A stretch of DNA of 64,000 bases from Rubrivivax sp. (GTDB lineage: Bacteria; Pseudomonadota; Gammaproteobacteria; Burkholderiales; Burkholderiaceae_C): positions 94,300-158,299 of the forward strand of contig JAHBZS010000005.1 of NCBI GenBank assembly GCA_019635285.1, written 5' to 3'. The notes beneath the pieces were generated by a model. That model searched no databases. It was not told the origin of the DNA and saw only the letters and a list, made by a program, of their open reading frames with translations. Shown one piece after another: positions 4,302 to 34,208 of this stretch; the first letter of the stretch is position 1, and each line of letters begins with the position of its first letter. Both the position numbers and the translations under genes were made by a program.

Positions 4302-4697
4302 ATGAACGCCCAGACACGTGCCCTCATCGACGAAGCCGCCCAGGGCTCCAACCAGGGCTGCCTGCACTTCGGCCAGGTCATCGGCCTGCTGGTGCAGGCC
4401 GGCGTCGAGGCCTACAGCGTCGACTACCGCGCCCGGCGCAGCACCTACTACCTGCCGGAAGGCGCGACGCTGGACGTCGACACGCCGATGCCCGACGTGG
4501 CCATCGCGCCGGACTTCGACGCCACGGCGCTGCGCGCCGCGATCCGCGGCGCGCAGCAGGGCGTGGTGATGTACCCGCAGTTCAAGGCGCTGTCGCGGCA
4601 GGCGGGCTGCGTCGGCTACACGGTCTGGATCGCCGGGCGGCACGTCAGCTACTTCGGCCGCCAGGGCGAAACTCACGTCGAGCGCTTCCCCGACTGA
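4302..4697 (+). CDS. DUF1398 family protein
   Basis: A 131-residue soluble protein that I place in DUF1398 (the YbcV-like family) from its N-terminal region on a cysteine-containing helix, the GVEAYSVDYR segment, the YYLPEG strand, and the QQGVVMYPQFK and AGCVGYTVWIAGRHVSYFGR C-terminal core. No biochemical function is established for the family. It stands alone between the SDR gene and the convergent minus-strand operon. Confidence 0.75.
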   Translation: MNAQTRALIDEAAQGSNQGCLHFGQVIGLLVQAGVEAYSVDYRARRSTYYLPEGATLDVDTPMPDVAIAPDFDATALRAAIRGAQQGVVMYPQFKALSRQAGCVGYTVWIAGRHVSYFGRQGETHVERFPD

Positions 4698-4738: not shown

Positions 4739-5290
4739 TCAGCCCGAATCGTCGTCGACGATCTTCAGCACCGACGCCGGCTTGAGGTTGAACTTCAGCA
4801 CGCTCACGCTCTGCACGCCCAGCGCGCTGGCCGGCAGCTGGGTGATGTGCAGGCCGTCCTGCACGTCGATGCCGCCGCGCACTTCCACCTCCACGCTGTC
4901 CACCAGCATGCCGCTGGTCTTCTGGCTCAGCACGTCGGCATTGATGCGGTCCACGTTGACCTTGAACTGGCTGACCAGGTCCTGCACGCCGATCTTCGGC
5001 GGGCTGGTCTGCAGCAGCTTCAGCTTCTCGGACAGGTCCTGCAGGCGGCCGGCCTGGCTGGCCAGTTCCTTGCGCGCCGCGTCCAGTTCGGCGCTGCGGC
5101 TGGCCAGCGCCTTCTGCGCCTCGGCGGCGCGCTGCGACAGTTCCGTGTTCACGCTGGCCAGGCGGTCGATCTCGGTGTCGCGCACCTTCACCGCAGCCAC
5201 CGCTTCGTTGAACTTGGCGCGCACCAGCTCGGGCTTCTGCAGCGTGGCGTCGTCCAGCTTCCCCGGATCGAAGGGCACGAAAGTGGCCAT
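4739..5290 (-). CDS. Coiled-coil protein, last gene of the uncharacterised six-gene operon
   Basis: A 183-residue protein I do not recognise. Residues of about 30-95 form a heptad-rich helix (alternating Leu/Ala with Glu, Arg, Gln) that should be a coiled coil. After a Pro-Pro break comes a beta-rich C-terminal domain ending in a LKFNLKPASVLKIVDD strand. That final 'short strand, K-P, strand' pattern recalls the C-termini of the three genes upstream. The start at 5290 has a good AGGAGA ribosome site 6 bases upstream. It lies 27 bases after the preceding gene, so it is very probably cotranscribed. No signal peptide or membrane helix is seen. Confidence 0.8.
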   Translation of the reverse strand: MATFVPFDPGKLDDATLQKPELVRAKFNEAVAAVKVRDTEIDRLASVNTELSQRAAEAQKALASRSAELDAARKELASQAGRLQDLSEKLKLLQTSPPKIGVQDLVSQFKVNVDRINADVLSQKTSGMLVDSVEVEVRGGIDVQDGLHITQLPASALGVQSVSVLKFNLKPASVLKIVDDDSG

Positions 5291-5317
5291 GGTCTTCTCC
5301 TGCGGGCGGCGGCTTGG

Positions 5318-5689
5318 TCAGGCGCCCGTGTGCGGCGGCACGGGCACGATGCGCAGCTTCAGCGTGCTGCTGCCTTCGGCGGAGAAGCCCAGCACGTTGC
5401 GGTACTTGGTGTTGAAGGGCGCCAGGTACATGCGCGCCGGGCCGGCCGGCTGCGTCTTCTCGAAGTGCAGCGCCATCTTCATTTCCACGCTGGCCTCGGG
5501 AATCTGGTACCAGGTGACCTGGTAGCCCAGCGCCTGCAACTCGGGGTGCTCGGCGGCCAGGCGGGCCTGGTTGTCGATGGCGGCGGCGTCCAGCGCGCGC
5601 TGCGCATCGGCCACGCTGGCGCCGATCTCGCGCACCATCGTGGCCAGCGGCGAGATCAGCACTTCGTTCATGTTCACGTCGGTGGCCAT
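5318..5689 (-). CDS. Uncharacterised operon protein, diverged paralogue
   Basis: A 123-residue protein related to the genes at 5731-6315 and 8033-8680. It shares the N-terminal helical pattern (a buried ...LxxxVxxIxxSVADAQRALD helix), a central EASVEMKMALHF strand where the paralogues have ALIEVKLSV, and an AEGSSTLKLRIVPVPP C-terminus. It is shorter because the middle region is reduced. An AGGAG ribosome site lies 6 bases before the ATG. The family function is unknown. The layout (amphipathic helix, beta core, final proline-rich strand) is loosely like DUF2589 proteins, but I cannot confirm that membership. Confidence 0.78.
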   Translation of the reverse strand: MATDVNMNEVLISPLATMVREIGASVADAQRALDAAAIDNQARLAAEHPELQALGYQVTWYQIPEASVEMKMALHFEKTQPAGPARMYLAPFNTKYRNVLGFSAEGSSTLKLRIVPVPPHTGA

Positions 5690-5730
5690 GGGGGCTCCTG
5701 TGTCGGGCTGCGGGCGCCGGATGCTCTGCG

Positions 5731-6315
5731 CTAGCGCTCGGTGCGCGTCACCACCGGCGGGTTGACCAGGGCATTCACCGTCACCACGTCGGGCGCCAGG
5801 CGCACCGGTGCGGGCACGGGTTTCATGGTCACGCGCAGCAGGCTGGAGCCTTCGGCGGTGTGCGTGTAGGTGCTGGCATTGCGGAAGTTCACCGGCGCGG
5901 CGAAGGCCATGATGCTGCGCTTGCTGAAACCGGGGCGCGTGCTGGTCTGCACCGTGCCGGCTTCCTTGAGGGTCACCGACAGCTTCACCTCGATCAGCGC
6001 TTCGGTGAACTGGTAGAAGGTGGGCAGCAGCCCGGCCTGCAGCAGCGTGGTCTTCACCGGCGTGGTCGGCTGCTGCGTCACGCTGACGCCGGCCACGGCC
6101 ACGTTCTGCCCGTTGACGACGACGTTGCTGTTGTTCGGCGCGATGACCTCCACCACCTCGGGAATCAGGTCGATGGCGTTGGCCTGGTCGGCCAGGAACT
6201 TCAGCGTGTCGATCGACGCGCGGTCCAGCGCCAGCTGGCCTTCGGCCACGGCGCCAGCCAGGTCGCGCACCATGTCGGCGATGGGGACGTCCAGCAGTTC
6301 TTGTCCGATGGCCAT
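5731..6315 (-). CDS. Uncharacterised operon protein, paralogue of 8033-8680
   Basis: A 194-residue protein. There are two in-frame ATGs, at 6321 and 6315. I chose 6315 because GAGGAG sits 7 bases before it and because the resulting N-terminus (MAIGQELLDVP) matches the paralogue's MSIGQELLDVP. Shared blocks are an N-terminal helix with EGQLALDRASIDT, the LLQAGLLPTFYQFTEALIEV block, a short STYTHTAEGSSLLR block and a MKPVPAP-containing end. No catalytic motif, signal peptide or membrane helix is visible. The pattern looks structural or binding rather than enzymatic, which is an inference. Confidence 0.8.
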   Translation of the reverse strand: MAIGQELLDVPIADMVRDLAGAVAEGQLALDRASIDTLKFLADQANAIDLIPEVVEVIAPNNSNVVVNGQNVAVAGVSVTQQPTTPVKTTLLQAGLLPTFYQFTEALIEVKLSVTLKEAGTVQTSTRPGFSKRSIMAFAAPVNFRNASTYTHTAEGSSLLRVTMKPVPAPVRLAPDVVTVNALVNPPVVTRTER

Positions 6316-6338
6316 GGCCATGCTCCTCGAGGGTTGCG

Positions 6339-8012
6339 TCAAGCAGCCGGTGGTCCGTCGCCGGTCGGCGGCTGCAGGCTGTGGAACAGCGCGCGCTGCC
6401 AGGCCAGCTGCCAGCGGTCGGGAAGTAGGCGCGCGCTGCGCGTCCGTTCGGGTCCGGGCGACATGGCGGCTGCGTCGCACCGCGCCAGCCAGCCGATGCC
6501 GCCCTGCTGGCACAGGCGCATCAGGCGGTCGTCGGCCAGCGGATGCCGCGGGTTGGGCTGCCAGCCGTCCAGCAGCAGCGGCGCGCGCAGGCCCCCGGCC
6601 AGGCCCGGCGCACGCGGGGCCTGCGGGCGCACGGCGTCCCACAGCAGGCCGACGCGTGGGTCCGGCAGCGAGGCGCAGGCGCTGCGCGCCGACTCCAGCG
6701 GCAGCCACACGCAGGCCGCCGGGTGCCATGCGCGCAACGCCAGCAGGGCCCGCAGCAGCTTGTCGGCCAGGCGTTCGCGCCCCAGCAACGCGAACATCAC
6801 CGCGCTGTGCCCGGCATAGCGGCGCGCCAGCTTCAGATGGTGACCGTGCAGCCACAGGCGGGCGTCGACGCGCAGCAAGCTGTAGGCGCCGGCCTCGGCC
6901 AGCGCGGCGATGGTCTCGTCCAGCCGCGCCAGGGCCGCGGGCGTGAGTTGCGCCACGACGCGCAGCGGCAGCGACACGCAGCGCTGGCCGGCGGGCACGC
7001 CGGCCATCAGCGCCTGAAGGTCGCACGGCGCGCCGTCGCCTTCACTGCGCAGGCCGATCAGACGCAGCGGCTGGCCGCGGCTGTCGACCAGCGCGCCGGC
7101 GCGGATGGACAACCAAGGCAAGGTCGACGCCGACACCGCCGACGCGCGCGTCCGGGCCGCACCCAGCGCGCGGGTCGCGGCCGGCTTCGCCACCTGGCGC
7201 GCAGGCGGCAGGGCGCCTGCACAACCATCTGCGCCCGCGCCACCGCCTGCGCGCGGGCCGGCCCGGGCGGCGGGGCGGGCGCTGTGTAGGCCGCGTGCCC
7301 GCGCCATGGCTGGGTGGCGCGGCAGGGTGCCGGGCCGTTCGGATGGCGCACCGTGCCTCCTCTTGCTCGACAGGCGCACGCGTCGGGGACGACCGGTCGC
7401 GTGGCGGGGGCGTCGGGCGCACGGTGGACGGGCGCGCGGCGGGCAGGCGGTCGATGATGGGCTTCGCTCGCTCAGGGCGACCGCGCGGCGCCGGCGCGGT
7501 AGGCCGCCCGGGTCGGTCGGCGCGTCCGGCAACATCAACGTGCGGCGCGGTCGGCAGATCTGCTGGCGTCTGGGCTGCTCCGGCCGCAAGGGCTGGGCGG
7601 GAGCCGCCGGCTGCCGCTGCGCGGCGCGCGGTCGGCGCGCGAGCGCCGTGACCGTGCGGGCAGCGCAGGCCGGTGACGCGTGGCGCGGTCGCGCGCCGTG
7701 GTTGCCGGCGGATCGGTGGCGGCACACCGGGCCTGGGCCGGCGGGGTCGCCGGCCGGTGCAGGGCCCTGCCGCGGCATGGCGGTACGTGCGGCCGGCGCC
7801 AGTGGTTTGCGCGACGCGCGTTCCGGCAGCGGCCGCGGCGGCGGCGCGCGCCCCCGCTCCATCGCGGAGCGTTCGCGCGGGCCACCCGCCTTGCGCGTCT
7901 CGTCGTTTGCCGCCTCACGCCCTTGCGCCAGCTCGCGCTGGCGCTGCAGCTGCCGCGCGCGTGCACGCTGCTGCCGCGCCTGCGCGCTGCGTGCCGATCG
8001 AGGCTTGGCCAT
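6339..8012 (-). CDS. Arg/Pro/Ala-rich protein with glycoside-hydrolase-like C-terminal domain
   Basis: The frame is open from 8012 to 6339, giving 557 residues. The first 250-300 are low-complexity Arg/Ala/Pro/Gln sequence, probably disordered. The C-terminal 230 or so start with ALVDSRGQPLRLIGLRSEG, which resembles the opening strand of GH5-type TIM-barrel glycosidases. They continue with barrel-like repeats, but I could not place the two catalytic glutamates. The ATG at 8012 lies 20 bases after the upstream gene's stop, fitting the operon. A shorter form from ATG 7307 (322 residues) is equally possible because neither start has a strong ribosome site. The enzyme may be inactive or a carbohydrate-binding relative. 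Confidence 0.5.
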   Translation of the reverse strand: MAKPRSARSAQARQQRARARQLQRQRELAQGREAANDETRKAGGPRERSAMERGRAPPPRPLPERASRKPLAPAARTAMPRQGPAPAGDPAGPGPVCRHRSAGNHGARPRHASPACAARTVTALARRPRAAQRQPAAPAQPLRPEQPRRQQICRPRRTLMLPDAPTDPGGLPRRRRAVALSERSPSSTACPPRARPPCARRPRHATGRPRRVRLSSKRRHGAPSERPGTLPRHPAMARARGLHSARPAARAGPRAGGGAGADGCAGALPPARQVAKPAATRALGAARTRASAVSASTLPWLSIRAGALVDSRGQPLRLIGLRSEGDGAPCDLQALMAGVPAGQRCVSLPLRVVAQLTPAALARLDETIAALAEAGAYSLLRVDARLWLHGHHLKLARRYAGHSAVMFALLGRERLADKLLRALLALRAWHPAACVWLPLESARSACASLPDPRVGLLWDAVRPQAPRAPGLAGGLRAPLLLDGWQPNPRHPLADDRLMRLCQQGGIGWLARCDAAAMSPGPERTRSARLLPDRWQLAWQRALFHSLQPPTGDGPPAA

Positions 8013-8032
8013 GACGGCCGCCGCTCGCCGCG

Positions 8033-8680
8033 TCAGGCGCCGAAGCTCACCTTGGGTGGCGTCAGGGTCGCGTCCACGGTGATGATGCGCGGGATGATGC
8101 GCGGCGGTGGCGGCACCGGCTTCAAGGTGGTGCGCAACAGGCTGGAGCCTTCGGCCGAGTAGTCGTAGGTCGAACTGCTCTTGTAGTTGACGTGCGAGGC
8201 GAAGGTCGTGCTCACCGAGGTCGACCCGCCAAAGCCGAACAGGCCGCCGTGCGCTTCGGCCTCGGTGCTGATCTCGAACTCGGCGCCGGCCTCGAACTCG
8301 CTCGACGACGAACTGCGGTGGCTGATGGAGATGCGCACCTCGATCAGCGACTCGGTGAACTGGTAGAAGGTGGGCAGCAGGCCGGCCTGCATCAGCGTCA
8401 TGTCCACCGCCTTGGCGGTTTCGGTGCGCACCGCGATGGTCTCCACGTCGCCGGTGTCGGCGCCGGGCAGCGCGACGCCGGCCTCCAGCGTGTCGGAGAT
8501 CTTCTTCTTCTCGACGATCTCGTAAATGTCCGGAATGACCTTGACCTTGGCCTTGGCCAACGCGCGCGCGGTGTCCAGCGACGCCTTGTCCAGCTTGCGC
8601 TGGCCCTGGGCGATGGCGTTGGCCATCTTGTAGATCATGTCCGGGAAGGGGACGTCCAGCAGTTCCTGACCGATGCTCAT
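8033..8680 (-). CDS. Uncharacterised operon protein, longest paralogue
   Basis: A 215-residue protein, the clearest member of the paralogous set. It has an N-terminal MSIGQELLDVPFPDM block, a Gln/Lys-rich helix, the LMQAGLLPTFYQFTESLIEV block, a serine-rich insertion (a run of Ser after HR, then a Gly/Phe-rich FGFGG segment), and an AEGSSLLRTTLKPVPPPP end. It starts 3 bases after the preceding gene's stop with an AGGTG ribosome site. No known enzyme motif is visible. Confidence 0.82.
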   Translation of the reverse strand: MSIGQELLDVPFPDMIYKMANAIAQGQRKLDKASLDTARALAKAKVKVIPDIYEIVEKKKISDTLEAGVALPGADTGDVETIAVRTETAKAVDMTLMQAGLLPTFYQFTESLIEVRISISHRSSSSSEFEAGAEFEISTEAEAHGGLFGFGGSTSVSTTFASHVNYKSSSTYDYSAEGSSLLRTTLKPVPPPPRIIPRIITVDATLTPPKVSFGA

Positions 8681-8683
8681 GGT

Positions 8684-9097
8684 TCACCTCTGCGAAGGTT
8701 GGGTGCGGATGCTCACGCCGGTGGCGCTGGCGGGGTCGTGAAGCGCTGGCCGGTGCCAGACCAGCGGGCGATGGCGCGGGCCCGCCGCCTGCGCCGTGGA
8801 AGCTGTGGGTTCGCGCGTAGCCAGTTGCGCGGCGACGTTGGTGGCGAACAGATGGCGCAGCTTGTGCGCGGCCGCGCCCTGGGGGTCGAGGCTCAAGCCC
8901 CCGCAGAAGGCCACCGCCTCGTGGCGCCGGAACAGCGGCAGCCATTGCTCGTCGAAGGCGGCGATCAGCGCCTCGCGGCCTGCGGCCATCAGCACGAAGC
9001 CGCCCACGCCGTGCACCAGGTCGGCGATGTCGTCGCGCACCGCGTCGTCGTCGCAGTGGCTGGCCTGCAGGCTGACGAGGAAGATCTGATGGGCCAA
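8684..9097 (-). CDS. Uncharacterised first gene of the six-gene operon (TTG start)
   Basis: A 137-residue soluble protein I do not recognise. The start is a TTG at 9097, supported by a perfect GGAGG ribosome site exactly 6 bases upstream (9104-9108 on the plus strand). The first 95 residues look folded, with acidic helices (DDDAVRDDIADLVHG), a hydrophobic strand GGFVLMAAG, and a glycine turn before SLDPQG. The last 40 are His/Pro/Ala-rich and probably disordered. It heads an operon running down to 4739. No promoter could be assigned with confidence in the 180 bases shared with the divergent acuI gene. Confidence 0.72.
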   Translation of the reverse strand: MAHQIFLVSLQASHCDDDAVRDDIADLVHGVGGFVLMAAGREALIAAFDEQWLPLFRRHEAVAFCGGLSLDPQGAAAHKLRHLFATNVAAQLATREPTASTAQAAGPRHRPLVWHRPALHDPASATGVSIRTQPSQR

Positions 9098-9278
9098 GGC
9101 GCGCCTCCGTCGGGGCTGGTGCCATGCTGCGCGATCCGGGCCCGGGGAACATACCTACAACTAGGGAGCGCGCGGCCACGTCGTAGGGGTCGCCGGTGCG
9201 CTGCCGGCGGGGGCTCGCCGCACCCGCACGATGGCCGGGGCATACTTTGAAGCTGCCCTTCGGAACATGGAGCACCCG

Positions 9279-10265
<987 letters not shown>

Positions 10266-11470: not shown

Positions 11471-12514
11471 TTACTTGAAGCCCACGCGGTCCAGCATCTG
11501 CTGCACCTGCGTCTGGTTGGCGCCGGCCTGGGCGATGGGCAGCGCGTCCACCTTGAACGTGCCCATGGCTTCCAGCGCCGGGTTCTTCACCTTGATGCCG
11601 GCCACCGCCGGCCATTCGTTGTTGCCGTCGGCGAAGTACACCTGGGCCTCGTCGCTGGCCAGGTACTCCAGGAACTTCTGCGCCTCGGCCGGGTTCTTGG
11701 CGTGTTTGGCCATCGCGCCGCCGGAGATGTTGATGTGCGTGCCCCAGCTGTCCTGGTTGGGGAACACGAAGCCGATCTTCGACATCGTCTCCACGTCCTC
11801 CGGCTTGGTCGAGCGCATCAGCCGCGCCAGGTAGTAGCTGTTGGTCAGCGCGATCTGGCACTCGCCGGTGGCGGCGGCCTTGATCTGGTCGGTGTCACCG
11901 CCCTTGGGCGCGCGCGCCATGTTGTCCACCACACCCTTCAGCCAGGCCTCGGTGGCCGGCGCGCCCAGGTGCTGCAGCATCGCGCCGACGAGCGTCAGGT
12001 TGTAGGGGTGCGAACCCGAGCGCGTGCACACCTTGCCCTTGTTCTTCGGGTCGGCCAGCTTCTGGTAGCTGTCCACGTCGGCGCGCTGCACCGTCGCCTT
12101 GTTGTAGACGATGAGGCGCGCCCGCGTCGAAAAGCCGAACCACTGCGGGCCGCCGCTGGTGTTGTCGCGCAGGTGCGCCGGGATGCGCTGCAGCAGCACG
12201 GGCGAATTCAGCGGCTGGAACATGCCCTCGGCTTCGGCCTTGGTCAGCCGCGCCGCGTCCACCAGCAGGATGACGTCGGCCGGGCTGGCGGCGCCCTCCG
12301 CCTTCAGCCGCGTGATCACGCCGGCGTCGTCCGCGTCGATGCGGTTGATCTTGATGCCGGTGGCCTTGGTGAAGTTGGCGTACAGCGCCTCGTCGGTCTG
12401 GTAGTGGCGCGCCGAGTACAGGTTCAGCACCTTGTCCTGGGCCGTGGCGGCCAGCGACGCGCCGGCCAGCAGCGTGGCCACGATCGAGCGCAGCGTGAAG
12501 GTGAGGTGGGCCAT
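11471..12514 (-). CDS. Fe(3+) ABC transporter substrate-binding protein
   Basis: A 347-residue periplasmic ferric-binding protein of the FbpA/FutA class. ATG 12514 gives a standard signal peptide ending SLAATAQ. The mature protein begins with the typical VLNLYSARHYQTDEALYANF strand-helix, and the tyrosine pair NSYYLARL corresponds to the iron-ligating tyrosines near residue 220. The permease and ATPase genes are not adjacent, so this receptor is either orphan or serves a transporter elsewhere. A Fur-like site lies upstream and a strong terminator lies downstream, making it a single-gene unit. Confidence 0.9.
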   Translation of the reverse strand: MAHLTFTLRSIVATLLAGASLAATAQDKVLNLYSARHYQTDEALYANFTKATGIKINRIDADDAGVITRLKAEGAASPADVILLVDAARLTKAEAEGMFQPLNSPVLLQRIPAHLRDNTSGGPQWFGFSTRARLIVYNKATVQRADVDSYQKLADPKNKGKVCTRSGSHPYNLTLVGAMLQHLGAPATEAWLKGVVDNMARAPKGGDTDQIKAAATGECQIALTNSYYLARLMRSTKPEDVETMSKIGFVFPNQDSWGTHINISGGAMAKHAKNPAEAQKFLEYLASDEAQVYFADGNNEWPAVAGIKVKNPALEAMGTFKVDALPIAQAGANQTQVQQMLDRVGFK

Positions 12515-12554
12515 GCATCCGACTCCAAAGTGAGGAGCGGCGATTCTAATGCGG

Positions 12555-12573
12555 ATGCGAACCATTCCTATTG
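12555..12573 (-). promoter_or_regulatory. Possible Fur box upstream of the ferric-binding protein gene
   Basis: Read on the minus strand the 19 bases are CAATAGGAATGGTTCGCAT. Allowing three changes, this resembles the betaproteobacterial Fur pattern AATGAGAATGATTCGCAT. It lies about 40 bases before the start codon in an otherwise GC-rich region. Iron-repressed expression would fit the gene. The match is imperfect. Confidence 0.35.
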
Positions 12574-28459: not shown

Positions 28460-32135
<3,676 letters not shown>

Positions 32136-32368
32136 TGAGGTTCTCTTTTAAGCCTGGTGGTCGTAGTAGGGGTTCACAGGGACTGTGGAAAACGCCATTT
32201 TCGCCTGTTCCATCAAAGGGTTAGAAAGGGGCGAACCCTGTGGGCCGGTCTGTGGCCGACGCTGGGACGCTTTGCTAGCAACTTTGCCGCGTCGCGCCCG
32301 TCTGTGGATGACGGTCCAGTTGGCAGAAAGTTGTCCCCAGGCTTGTGCCTTGACAGCGTGTCGATTCC
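32136..32368. other. dnaA-dnaN intergenic region with DnaA-box-like sites
   Basis: This 233-base gap contains TGTGGAAAA at 32184-32192 and TGTGGATGA at 32303-32311, the latter one mismatch from the box complement TGTGGATAA. It is relatively AT-richer than the surrounding genes. It may be part of the replication origin and/or the DnaA-controlled dnaN promoter. No coding sequence fits here. Confidence 0.5.
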
Positions 32369-33805
32369 TTATCCCTTGAGCGTCTGTTCCAGCACGTGCA
32401 GCTGCTGGTTCAGTTCGCTGTTCTTGCCGCGTTCGCCGCCGATCTTGCGCACCGCATGCAGCACCGTCGTGTGGTCGCGCCCGCCGAAGAGCTCGCCGAT
32501 CTCGGGCAGGCTCTTCTGCGTCATCTCCTTGGCCAGGTACATGGCGATCTGCCGCGGCCGGGCGATGCTGGCCGGGCGCTTCTTGCTGTACATGTCGGCG
32601 ATCTTGATCTTGTAGAAGTCGGCCACCGTCTTCTGGATGTTTTCCACCGACACCTGGCGGTTCTGGATCGACAGCAGGTCCTTCAGCGCTTCGCGCGCCA
32701 GGCCGATGTTGATGTCCTTATGGCTGAAGCGGCTGTAGGCCAGCACCTTGCGCAGCGCGCCTTCCAGCTCGCGCACGTTGGCGCGCACGTTCTTGGCGAC
32801 GAAGAAGGCCACCTCCTCCGGCATGGCGGCGCCTTCGGCTTCGGCCTTGCGGATCAGGATGGCCACGCGCATCTCCAGCTCGGGCGGCTCGATGGCCACC
32901 GTCAGCCCGGCGTCGAAGCGGCTGGTCAGCCGCTCGTCGATGTCGGCCAGCCCCTTGGGATAGGTGTCGCTGGTCATGATGATGTGCGCGCGCTTGGCCA
33001 GCAGCGCCTCGAAGGCGTTGAAGAACTCCTCCTGCGTGCGCTCCTTGCCGGCAAAGAACTGCACGTCGTCGATCAGCAGCAGGTCCAGGCTGTGGTACTT
33101 GGCCTTCAGCTCGTCGAAGGTCTTGCGCTGGTAGTTCTTGACCACGTCGCTGATGAACTGCTCGGCATGCAGATACAGCACGCGCGCGTCCGGGTTGTCC
33201 TGCAGCAGCGCATTGCCCACCGCATGCACCAGGTGCGTCTTGCCCAGGCCGACACCGCCATAGATGAATAGCGGGTTGTACATCTGCCCCGGCGCACCGG
33301 CCACGTGCAGCGCGGCGGTGCGCGCCATCTGGTTGGCCCGGCCGGGCACCAACGAGTCGAAGGTCAGCGCCGGGTTGAGCTTGTGGCGTGGTGCGGGCGC
33401 GGCGGCCGCCTGCGATGCGCGCTCGCGCCCGTCGACGGCGGGTGCGCCCGGGCCGACCTGCGGCAGCGGCAGCGCCGACACGGCATGCGTCGCGCAGTTG
33501 GCATGCCGCCGTTCCAAGGCCATCGCCGGCGCACGCGCCGGTACCTCGCGGGCGGCCAGGCTCAACTCCAGGCGCACCGGCCCGGCCGCCAGGTCGGCAA
33601 GCACCGATTCGATCAGGCTGGCGTACTGCGCGCGGATCCAGTCGAGCTTGAAGCGATTGGGCACGCGCACGCAAACCACGGTCGGCTCGCCCGCGCCTTG
33701 CTGCAGTTCGGCCGGCGGGAGCGGGCGGATCCAGGTGTTGAACTGGTGTTCCGGCAACTGCTCTGCAAGGCGGTCGCAGGCCAGCTGCCACAGGTCGGGC
33801 GTCAT
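32369..33805 (-). CDS. dnaA: Chromosomal replication initiator protein DnaA
   Basis: A 478-residue initiator ATPase. The ATG at 33805 gives the standard N-terminal domain I ([25 protein letters not shown]). A variable Ala/Pro linker spans about 85-145. The AAA+ domain has Walker [10 protein letters not shown] and Walker [11 protein letters not shown]. The C-terminal DNA-binding helix-turn-helix is marked by [14 protein letters not shown] and [11 protein letters not shown]. It is transcribed away from rpmH. A TTTTCCACA box lies immediately before the start codon, suggesting autoregulation. Confidence 0.98.
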
Positions 33806-34073
33806 TGTGGAAAACTTGTCTCTTTTGACCTCGTATTGTAGGGTCTGCGCAAGCGCAGAGGCAGGGTTATTCACAGTTTCATGGCCAAGATCAATAGCGC
33901 CCCAGCGCACGCGGCGGCGGCCCAAGTGATTGACCCGAAAGGGGTTTTTTGATGTAATCGTGGGTTTCCCGAGGCACAGGGTCGGGCGCAATGTGTGGCT
34001 GAGTCGCCGCGCGCGCACGGACGCACCCCCGCTAGTCGCACCCTGCTGCTGCCCATTTGGACCAGGAACCAGC
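33806..34073. other. dnaA-rpmH divergent region, probable part of oriC
   Basis: The gap between the initiator gene and rpmH has a DnaA box TTATTCACA at 33867-33875 (plus strand). A box-like TTTTCCACA, read on the minus strand, touches the dnaA start (33806-33814). Short AT-rich stretches and the rpmH promoter are also here. The origin in related bacteria lies beside dnaA, and the scattered boxes continue into rnpA. The exact unwinding element was not identified. Confidence 0.5.
33930..33958 (+). promoter_or_regulatory. Sigma-70 promoter of the rpmH-rnpA-yidD-yidC operon
   Basis: TTGACC (33930-33935) is separated by 17 bases from TGTAAT (33953-33958). It points toward rpmH and leaves a leader of about 110 bases. 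Confidence 0.6.
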
Positions 34074-34208
34074 ATGAAACGCACCTATCAGCCCTCCAAA
34101 GTTCGCCGTGCCCGCACGCATGGCTTCCTGGTGCGCATGAAGACACGCGGCGGCCGCGCCGTGATCAGCGCGCGCCGCGCCAAGGGCCGCAAGCGCCTCG
34201 GCCTCTGA
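34074..34208 (+). CDS. rpmH: 50S ribosomal protein L34
   Basis: A 44-residue, highly basic protein, [19 protein letters not shown] onward, ending KGRKRLGL. This is the invariant L34 sequence pattern and length. The open frame extends upstream, but only ATG 34074 gives the family start. It leads the classical rpmH-rnpA-yidD-yidC-mnmE order. Confidence 0.98.

What the first reader, a model, noticed from the sequence alone, without database searches (positions are those of the whole stretch)
4739..9097. Uncharacterised six-gene operon with at least three paralogous small proteins
Six minus-strand genes are packed with gaps of 3-41 bases, most with strong ribosome sites. Two (8033-8680 and 5731-6315) share the xIGQELLDVP start, the LLPTFYQFTExLIEV block and the AEGSSLLR...KPVP end. 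A third (5318-5689) keeps only the ends, and a coiled-coil gene closes the set. None matches a function I know. Gene duplication inside one operon suggests subunits of one assembly, perhaps with the glycosidase-like protein as the active part.
Basis: partly seen in the sequence, partly recalled or inferred. Interest (0 to 1): 0.72.

Follow-up and report, generated by a model that had tools for sequence, protein, structure and literature searches.

The report
Unknown multi-part protein assembly operon
The six packed genes are one version of an uncatalogued bacterial gene cluster, found in scattered species of several phyla, that probably builds a soluble multi-part protein assembly from duplicated helix-plus-hairpin subunits; its job is still unknown, and its sugar-enzyme-like part looks catalytically dead.

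Summary
In detail: six minus-strand genes (4739-9097), gaps 3-41 bp, three true paralogues (g2/g5 44% identical; g5/g6 BLASTP 6e-12 along all of g6). No window gene passes a Pfam, NCBIfam or PHROGs cut-off, but a pattern scan of 84,980 species genomes gave 69 loci in nine named phyla. The window's six-gene order is complete in 6 of 6 uncut relatives. A related cluster (order kept in 32 of 33 loci) adds an L7/L12-like and a TPR protein, OmpA and PASTA domains and a basic linker protein. In a 129-row tree 11 of 15 operon positions form single lineages, across phyla where tested, and one subunit class was duplicated separately in four cluster types: the mark of a hetero-oligomer. g7 is the coiled-coil partner. 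g4 is an Arg/Pro-rich chain plus a GH5-cellulase-like barrel; the acid/base Glu is lost in 11 of 11 homologues and the window lacks both catalytic Glu. No signal peptide by hydrophobicity, no phage or defence match, no fold match. Distant kin: DUF2589 (hhalign 2e-5). Best reading: a cytosol-built structural particle or ring that displays glycan- or wall-binding domains. The assembly idea is supported by evolution only; the active-glycosidase idea is not supported.

The parts
8684..9097 (-). g1, 137 aa (TTG start): small protein with a conserved core; role unknown
   Evidence: homologues in 12 of 70 sources (window counted), all of the window type; 44-68% identity; no family match above cut-off; weak profile match to the first small gene of L021/L042 (hhalign E 4e-4, prob 34)
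8033..8680 (-). g2, 215 aa: paralogous subunit of class c0, the most conserved gene (73-91% identity to full-length orthologues)
6339..8012 (-). g4, 557 aa, pI 11.9: N-terminal ~290 aa (about 7143-8012) Arg/Ala/Pro-rich and basic; C-terminal ~267 aa a GH5-like barrel relative without catalytic glutamates
   Evidence: composition; GH5 by chain window-type rows -> L010/L016 (E 7e-31, 1e-35) -> L017 (E 9e-16) -> PF00150 (E 5.6e-16); catalytic residues
5731..6315 (-). g5, 194 aa: paralogous subunit of class c0, sister of g2
   Evidence: g2+g5 clade SH-aLRT 98; AlphaFold2 model: helix 12-42 plus long strands, pLDDT 76
5318..5689 (-). g6, 123 aa: minimal paralogous subunit, class c1
   Evidence: BLASTP vs g5 6e-12; falls with the other c1 rows, 31 in all, one change on the tree; AlphaFold2 model: helix 7-47 plus strands 60-71 and 107-117, pLDDT 76
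4739..5290 (-). g7, 183 aa: coiled coil plus a C-terminal ~74-aa domain (4772-4993) that matches the inner domain of gene C5 of the ten-gene cluster
   Evidence: homologues in 18 of 70 sources; hhalign of the C-terminal domain against C5 E 5.5e-6, prob 86; against the paralogue core E 0.003, prob 10, suggestive only
4302..4697 (+). flanking gene, PF07166 (DUF1398), opposite strand: boundary, not part of the operon
   Evidence: Pfam E 1e-7
9231..10265 (+). flanking oxidoreductase-like gene (by eye), opposite strand: other boundary; 90% identical in G016, where other genes fill the slot

Best explanation
The six genes encode a soluble, cytosol-built hetero-oligomeric assembly carried on an accessory operon that moves between lineages. 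Its walls or ring are made of paralogous subunits (g2 and g5 of class c0, g6 of class c1), each an N-terminal helix of about 30-40 residues followed by a long beta-hairpin with a Ser/Thr-rich flexible tip; distinct paralogues hold distinct positions. g7, a coiled coil with its own small strand-rich domain, ties the subunits together or spans the assembly. g4 carries a long basic arm, expected to bind the acidic subunits, and a catalytically dead GH5-like barrel that would serve as a sugar-binding head. In sister clusters the same kind of subunits carry OmpA-type and PASTA domains, both typical wall-binding modules, which suggests that the finished particle engages peptidoglycan or another glycan. 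SHOWN: homology, operon conservation, largely position-specific orthology, loss of both catalytic residues in the window copy, no signal-like N-terminus by hydrophobicity, charge split in the window and ten-gene types. INFERRED: that the proteins touch each other, the ring or wall geometry, glycan binding, the cell-envelope target.
For: Three paralogues. 256 paralogue ORFs in 69 of 70 sources. Six-gene order complete in 6 of 6 uncut window-type loci (L004, L006, L008, L010, L011, L012; L004 and L006 are both titled Xenophilus aerolatus), and the two halves found on separate contigs of four more records (L003/L013, L005/L015, L007/L014, L009/L016; L005 is the same strain E41 as L004). Ten-gene order in 32 of 33 loci in which both the first gene and C5 were called; the exception, L048, lacks only a called TPR gene. 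Tree of 129 rows from 33 of 70 sources: 15 position groups need 15 label changes (least possible 14, shuffled mean 93); 11 of 15 groups are one side of a branch, posA, posB and posD need two changes and g6type three; c0/c1 split one change; g2+g5, posC+posD, the two Bacillota c0 genes and the two c0 genes of L021/L042 are sister sets at SH-aLRT 95-98. Of 433 ORFs in 11 roles 0 pass a signal-like N-terminal hydrophobicity cut and 5 a membrane-segment cut; paralogues and g7 acidic (median pI about 5), g4 and ten-gene linkers basic (median 11.9 and 10.8). OmpA, PASTA in C5 and c1, L7/L12 CTD, GH5 chain, dead sites.
Confidence: 0.5

Rival explanations
1. The assembly is a pore: the long Ser/Thr-rich hairpins of the paralogues insert together as a beta-barrel into a membrane, and the accessory domains dock it at the envelope.
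For: Hairpin segments are 31% Ser+Thr against 17% for the whole proteins (69 of 129 rows could be parsed); the g2 tip region is rich in Gly and Phe; the non-significant Foldseek lists contain pore-forming proteins (pneumolysin domain E 0.97; an aerolysin-like protein E 2.2).
Against: No fold match is significant; Ser/Thr-rich loops are common; no signal-like N-terminus; I recognised no immunity gene, but did not search for one.
Confidence: 0.13
2. It is a reduced contractile-tail or injection device (tailocin, eCIS, T6SS kin), which would explain wall-binding domains on proteins without signal peptides, and paralogous rings.
For: OmpA, PASTA and PG_binding_1 domains in clusters without signal-like N-termini; the large last gene of L022 and of L023 has an HExxH motif (by eye), and that of L022 matched eCIS_core at E 0.09, below cut-off, that of L023 not.
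Against: No sheath, tube, baseplate or AAA+ match in Pfam for the proteins scanned; no convincing PHROGs match for the six window proteins or 61 family members (best E 0.004, single members); no match in 50,697 phage records with g2 or, with one peptide pattern, in IMG/VR.
Confidence: 0.1
3. It is a cytosolic condensate, storage body or regulatory scaffold; the L7/L12-like and TPR genes of the larger version point to translation or proteostasis rather than to the envelope.
For: L7/L12 C-terminal-domain match (E 4e-6) and TPR open the ten-gene cluster; acidic subunits beside one basic chain in the window and ten-gene types.
Against: Genes of those two clusters were not seen in window-type loci; OmpA and PASTA domains are hard to explain.
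Confidence: 0.17
4. One reading: an enzyme complex in which the glycosidase-like protein is the active part.
For: g4 is GH5-related by a homology chain.
Against: Acid/base Glu lost in 11 of 11 homologues; nucleophile Glu kept in 1 of 11 (L017) and replaced by Gly in the window; the g4 profile finds nothing in the ten-gene, Rhodobacteraceae and Bacillota loci.
Confidence: 0.04

Closest known systems
DUF2589 (PF11655), uncharacterised family
   Same: Similar length and layout, N-terminal helix then strand-rich part; full-length profile alignment, hhalign E 1.9e-5, prob 77, 164 columns (E 1.7e-5 over 50 columns with three rows), against 0.36-0.54 for unrelated profiles. Also in tandem: two copies in 2 of 3 genomes with hits, of 150 searched; a 2014 paper mentions a region of 'short, DUF2589 related genes (AF0414-AF0417)' in Archaeoglobus fulgidus (PMC3949148, one passage seen).
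   Different: No window paralogue matches PF11655 at E <= 1; of 61 family members one matches, at E 0.053; the c1-centred profile is weaker (E 2.8e-4, prob 41; 0.012 with three rows); the FYQF and AEGSSLLR blocks are not seen in the DUF2589 rows; different neighbours.
Glycoside hydrolase family 5 (PF00150)
   Same: C-terminal half of g4 belongs to a lineage whose L017 member is GH5 (E 5.6e-16; PDB 4hty E 8e-13)
   Different: Both catalytic glutamates absent in the window; long basic arm; no signal-like N-terminus
Ring-building assemblies such as FliF RBM3/beta-collar and SpoIIIAG
   Different: Z far below a reliable match; no membrane segment found

Membership tests
DUF2589 (PF11655) | Score above Pfam's gathering cut-off | tested here: not met
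   0 families at E <= 1 for g2, g5 and g6; best of 61 members E 0.053
DUF2589 (PF11655) | Colinear homology over the domain | tested here: inconclusive
   hhalign E 1.9e-5, prob 77, 164 columns; with A8 E 2.8e-4, prob 41; controls 0.36, 0.54, 0.38
GH5 cellulase | Barrel homology | tested here: met
   by chain through L010/L011/L016 and L017; not directly for the window copy
GH5 cellulase | Acid/base Glu (NEP, recalled and seen in the 4hty alignment) and nucleophile Glu | tested here: not met
   window has Arg and Gly at these columns; acid/base lost in 11 of 11, nucleophile in 10 of 11
Contractile tail / eCIS / T6SS | Sheath, tube, baseplate or AAA+ components in the cluster | tested here: not met
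   none in Pfam or PHROGs for the proteins scanned; not every gene of every locus was scanned
Known anti-phage defence systems (PADLOC-DB 2.0.0) | Match of operon proteins to a system's models | tested here: not met
   10 proteins scanned, nine of L036 and g7; five matches' worth of rows at E 0.001-0.008 that look like chance, OmpA or coiled coil
Beta-pore-forming proteins | Fold and prestem arrangement | tested here: inconclusive
   no significant fold match; models of middling confidence
Ring-building motif proteins (FliF RBM3, SpoIIIAG) | Shared fold | tested here: inconclusive

The most novel reading that the evidence does not exclude
A so far undescribed class of self-assembling bacterial machine, built in the cytosol from position-specific helix-plus-hairpin paralogues (with DUF2589 tandem clusters of bacteria and archaea as its distant branch), which forms a giant ring, tube or shell and docks to or crosses the cell wall through swappable OmpA, PASTA or sugar-binding heads.
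Probability: 0.27. Interest if true: 0.88.

Novelty: categorically new. Interest (0 to 1): 0.62.

Why it matters
A gene order of about ten genes kept in Pseudomonadota, Bacteroidota, Gemmatimonadota and SAR324 loci, with most paralogue positions forming separate lineages, is what one expects of a machine; yet 61 members of the subunit family matched no Pfam, NCBIfam or PHROGs family convincingly and no solved structure was found. If the assembly is real it is a new complex to solve, and its modular wall-binding parts make its target testable. It would also give a functional handle on DUF2589.

Tried and rejected
Direct family searches gave only chance or coiled-coil matches for the window genes (Pfam, NCBIfam, PHROGs; PADLOC, with g7 and nine L036 proteins); member-by-member scans of 61 family rows gave single-member matches that look like chance. 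A3 against PDB sequences: best E 0.87. Fold searches gave nothing significant: PDB for g5 and g6 and viral models for g5 only (best E 0.076, prob 0.75, TM 0.30, an unnamed 178-aa protein). Red copper protein, Fanconi complex and ribosomal rows were rejected as common arrangements. Phage origin: no phage record with g2; 13 pattern hits but no relative in IMG/VR with A3. Plasmids: one record with g2, Sphaerotilus sulfidivorans. A homology of g7's end to the paralogue core is suggestive only (hhalign E 0.003, prob 10; with A3 E 0.038; g6/g7 z 4.0, g5/g7 z 0.7). g1 shows no likeness to g2 or g6 (z -0.7 and -0.4). Promoter scan 0 sites, terminator scan 2 against 1.6 expected, Rfam 0. Literature: 'DUF2589' 1 paper, 'DUF2589 domain-containing' 0, 'PF11655' 0, and four combined-domain queries 0; 'AF0414' gave 19 papers, 5 listed, none of those five relevant by title. 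Subscription papers are not held, so 'not in print' is claimed only for these searches.

Limits: the 69 loci came from two peptide patterns centred on the g2/g5 start and are a lower bound; many are contigs of metagenome-assembled genomes, where a contig can be binned wrongly. Several loci are two contigs of one record set (L003/L013, L005/L015, L007/L014, L009/L016, L017/L069), and L004 and L005 are one strain. Gene maps come from a crude caller that missed genes; L033, L049, L063, L066 and L070 look like partial or miscalled ten-gene loci and are outside the 33. The signal test is a hydropathy cut on the longest ORF start, not a signal-peptide predictor. In one search at most 8 candidates per genome were scored. 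The tree used the quick method and warned of long branches among c1 rows. The E-values are for a set size of 1000.
Full report
WHAT IS THERE. Six minus-strand ORFs between 9097 and 4739 are separated by 3, 20, 23, 41 and 27 bases. Five of six have a GGAG/GAGG-like ribosome site; g4 has none visible. g2 (8033-8680) and g5 (5731-6315) are 44% identical, and their common blocks show even as DNA repeats of 72-134 nt at 71-88% identity. The genes on both sides are on the other strand.

NOT A GENUS TRAIT. Of 60 relatives, 36 of them of the same genus, none has g2. In a sample of its family 9 of 399 genomes match, own included, and in a sample of the phylum only the own genome of 398 (at most 8 candidates scored per genome). 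G016, a same-genus genome with both flanks on one contig, has the flanking genes at about 90-91% identity, 5.55 kb apart, with different genes between them and no tblastn match to the operon, so this is a variable slot. g2 is 80% identical in Plastoroseomonas arctica and 73% in a record titled Acetobacteraceae, both alphaproteobacteria as I recall, which fits horizontal transfer.

A WIDE FAMILY. One scan of 84,980 species genomes with two peptide patterns from g2/g5 gave 142 stretches, 71 of them relatives, in 69 loci: Pseudomonadota 51, Bacillota 5, Bacteroidota 4, Actinomycetota 2, Acidobacteriota 2, one each of Thermodesulfobacteriota, Chloroflexota, Planctomycetota and Gemmatimonadota, and one unplaced, titled SAR324. 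Iterated profiles find 256 paralogue ORFs in 69 of 70 sources, g1 in 12, g4 in 13 and g7 in 18. Several cluster types appear. (i) Window type: g1-c0-g4-c0-c1-g7, complete and in order in all six uncut loci, two of them one species; four more record sets carry the two halves on separate contigs, and the Acidobacteria pair L017/L069 has a rearranged version with a second coiled-coil gene. (ii) Ten-gene type: L7/L12-like, TPR, first paralogue (long in many), three more c0, linker, sixth paralogue-like gene, C5, c1; order kept in 32 of the 33 loci in which the first gene and C5 were called. (iii) Small types: c1-coiled coil-c0 in Rhodobacteraceae; two c0 with further small genes in L021 (Chloroflexota), L042 (Actinomycetota) and on a Sphaerotilus plasmid; and in Bacillota c1-coiled coil-c0-c0-linker, with, in L022, L023 and L025, a last protein of about 1460-1580 aa.

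DOMAINS OF THE RELATIVES. The first gene of the ten-gene type begins with an L7/L12 C-terminal-domain-like stretch (profile of 16 rows against PDB 1ctf, E 4e-6); the next is TPR (one protein scanned). The long first paralogue has an OmpA domain in 3 of 3 proteins scanned; in 11 aligned copies the Asp of the peptidoglycan-binding motif (recalled) is kept in 10 and the Arg in 11. In the Amphritea, Oceanobacter, SAR324 and Gemmatimonadota loci this gene is short. C5 ends in PASTA (one protein; a 17-row profile), c1 has a C-terminal PASTA in 4 of 4 ten-gene-type copies scanned, and the coiled-coil gene of L018 has three. g7's C-terminal domain matches C5's inner domain (hhalign 5.5e-6), so g7 is read as the slim counterpart of C5.

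POSITION-SPECIFIC PARALOGUES. A tree of 129 rows from 33 of 70 sources separates c1 from c0 in one change; the 15 position labels need 15 changes together, one above the least possible, against 93 for shuffled labels. Eleven of 15 groups are one side of a branch; posA, posB and posD need two changes each and g6type three, so the fit is close but not perfect. g2+g5 (98), the Bacillota pair (95), posC+posD (98) and the L021/L042 pair (98) are sister sets. So c0 and c1 look like old partners, and c0 was duplicated separately in several lineages and then held in a fixed place. That pattern fits a hetero-oligomer with distinct positions better than redundant copies.

THE GLYCOSIDASE-LIKE GENE. g4 itself reaches no GH5 model at E <= 1 and no PDB chain. 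The link is a chain: window-type rows find L016 and L010 at E 1e-35 and 7e-31 and L011 at 1e-9; L010/L011/L016 find L017 at 9e-16; L017 is PF00150 at 5.6e-16 and aligns with PDB 4hty. The step from window-type rows straight to L017 fails (E 1.9). In the alignment of 11 homologues the acid/base Glu is absent from all 11 and the nucleophile Glu from 10; the window has Arg and Gly. It is best read as a binding module; binding was not tested.

DISTANT KIN. Profiles align the family with DUF2589 over its length (E 1.9e-5, prob 77; c1-centred profile 2.8e-4, prob 41), while three unrelated comparisons give 0.36-0.54. By Pfam's cut-off it is not a member. DUF2589 genes too come in tandem in 2 of 3 genomes with hits, of 150 searched, and stand near genes annotated as peptidoglycan-binding in two plasmids.

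READING. I commit to a soluble hetero-oligomeric particle with interchangeable glycan- or wall-binding heads (0.5). Assembly is inferred from evolution, not shown; the envelope target is borrowed from relatives. Pore, tail-like device and condensate remain open. 'Categorically new' rests on the absence of any catalogued family, fold or system in the collections named, and on eight searches of an open-access library; a description elsewhere could change it.

Noticed in passing
window 28460-34084: Minus-strand genes that read as gyrB, dnaN and dnaA (names recalled, no family search run) lie about 20-25 kb from the operon, so the operon probably sits near the chromosome origin.
   Followed up: no
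L022 13541-18052, L023 13567-18303: Rumen Bacillota clusters end in proteins of 1503 and 1578 aa with an HExxH motif near the N-terminus (by eye); the first matched eCIS_core at E 0.09, below cut-off, the second did not.
   Followed up: partly
L064 13313-17292: The SAR324 cluster is followed by two related proteins of 666 and 660 aa with a PG_binding_1 match (E 3e-4, below cut-off, and 3e-6) and no signal peptide by eye.
   Followed up: partly
L105, L106, L107: DUF2589 genes stand in tandem or beside small unknown genes; in L106 they are followed by genes that by eye look like an amidase and a DUF2235-like hydrolase.
   Followed up: partly
   Followed up: partly
G574 C1 665695-667327: A genome of the window's family with four paralogue matches close together, perhaps the ten-gene type in this family.
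   Followed up: no
window 11471-12565; L067 9751-10782: A gene for a periplasmic-binding-type protein of one sequence cluster lies two genes from the operon in the window and directly after the mini-cluster in L067; perhaps chance.
   Followed up: no
L017 2078-3373: In the Acidobacteria relative a coiled-coil gene carries two DUF11 repeats (E 8e-34), another swap of the outer domain.
   Followed up: partly
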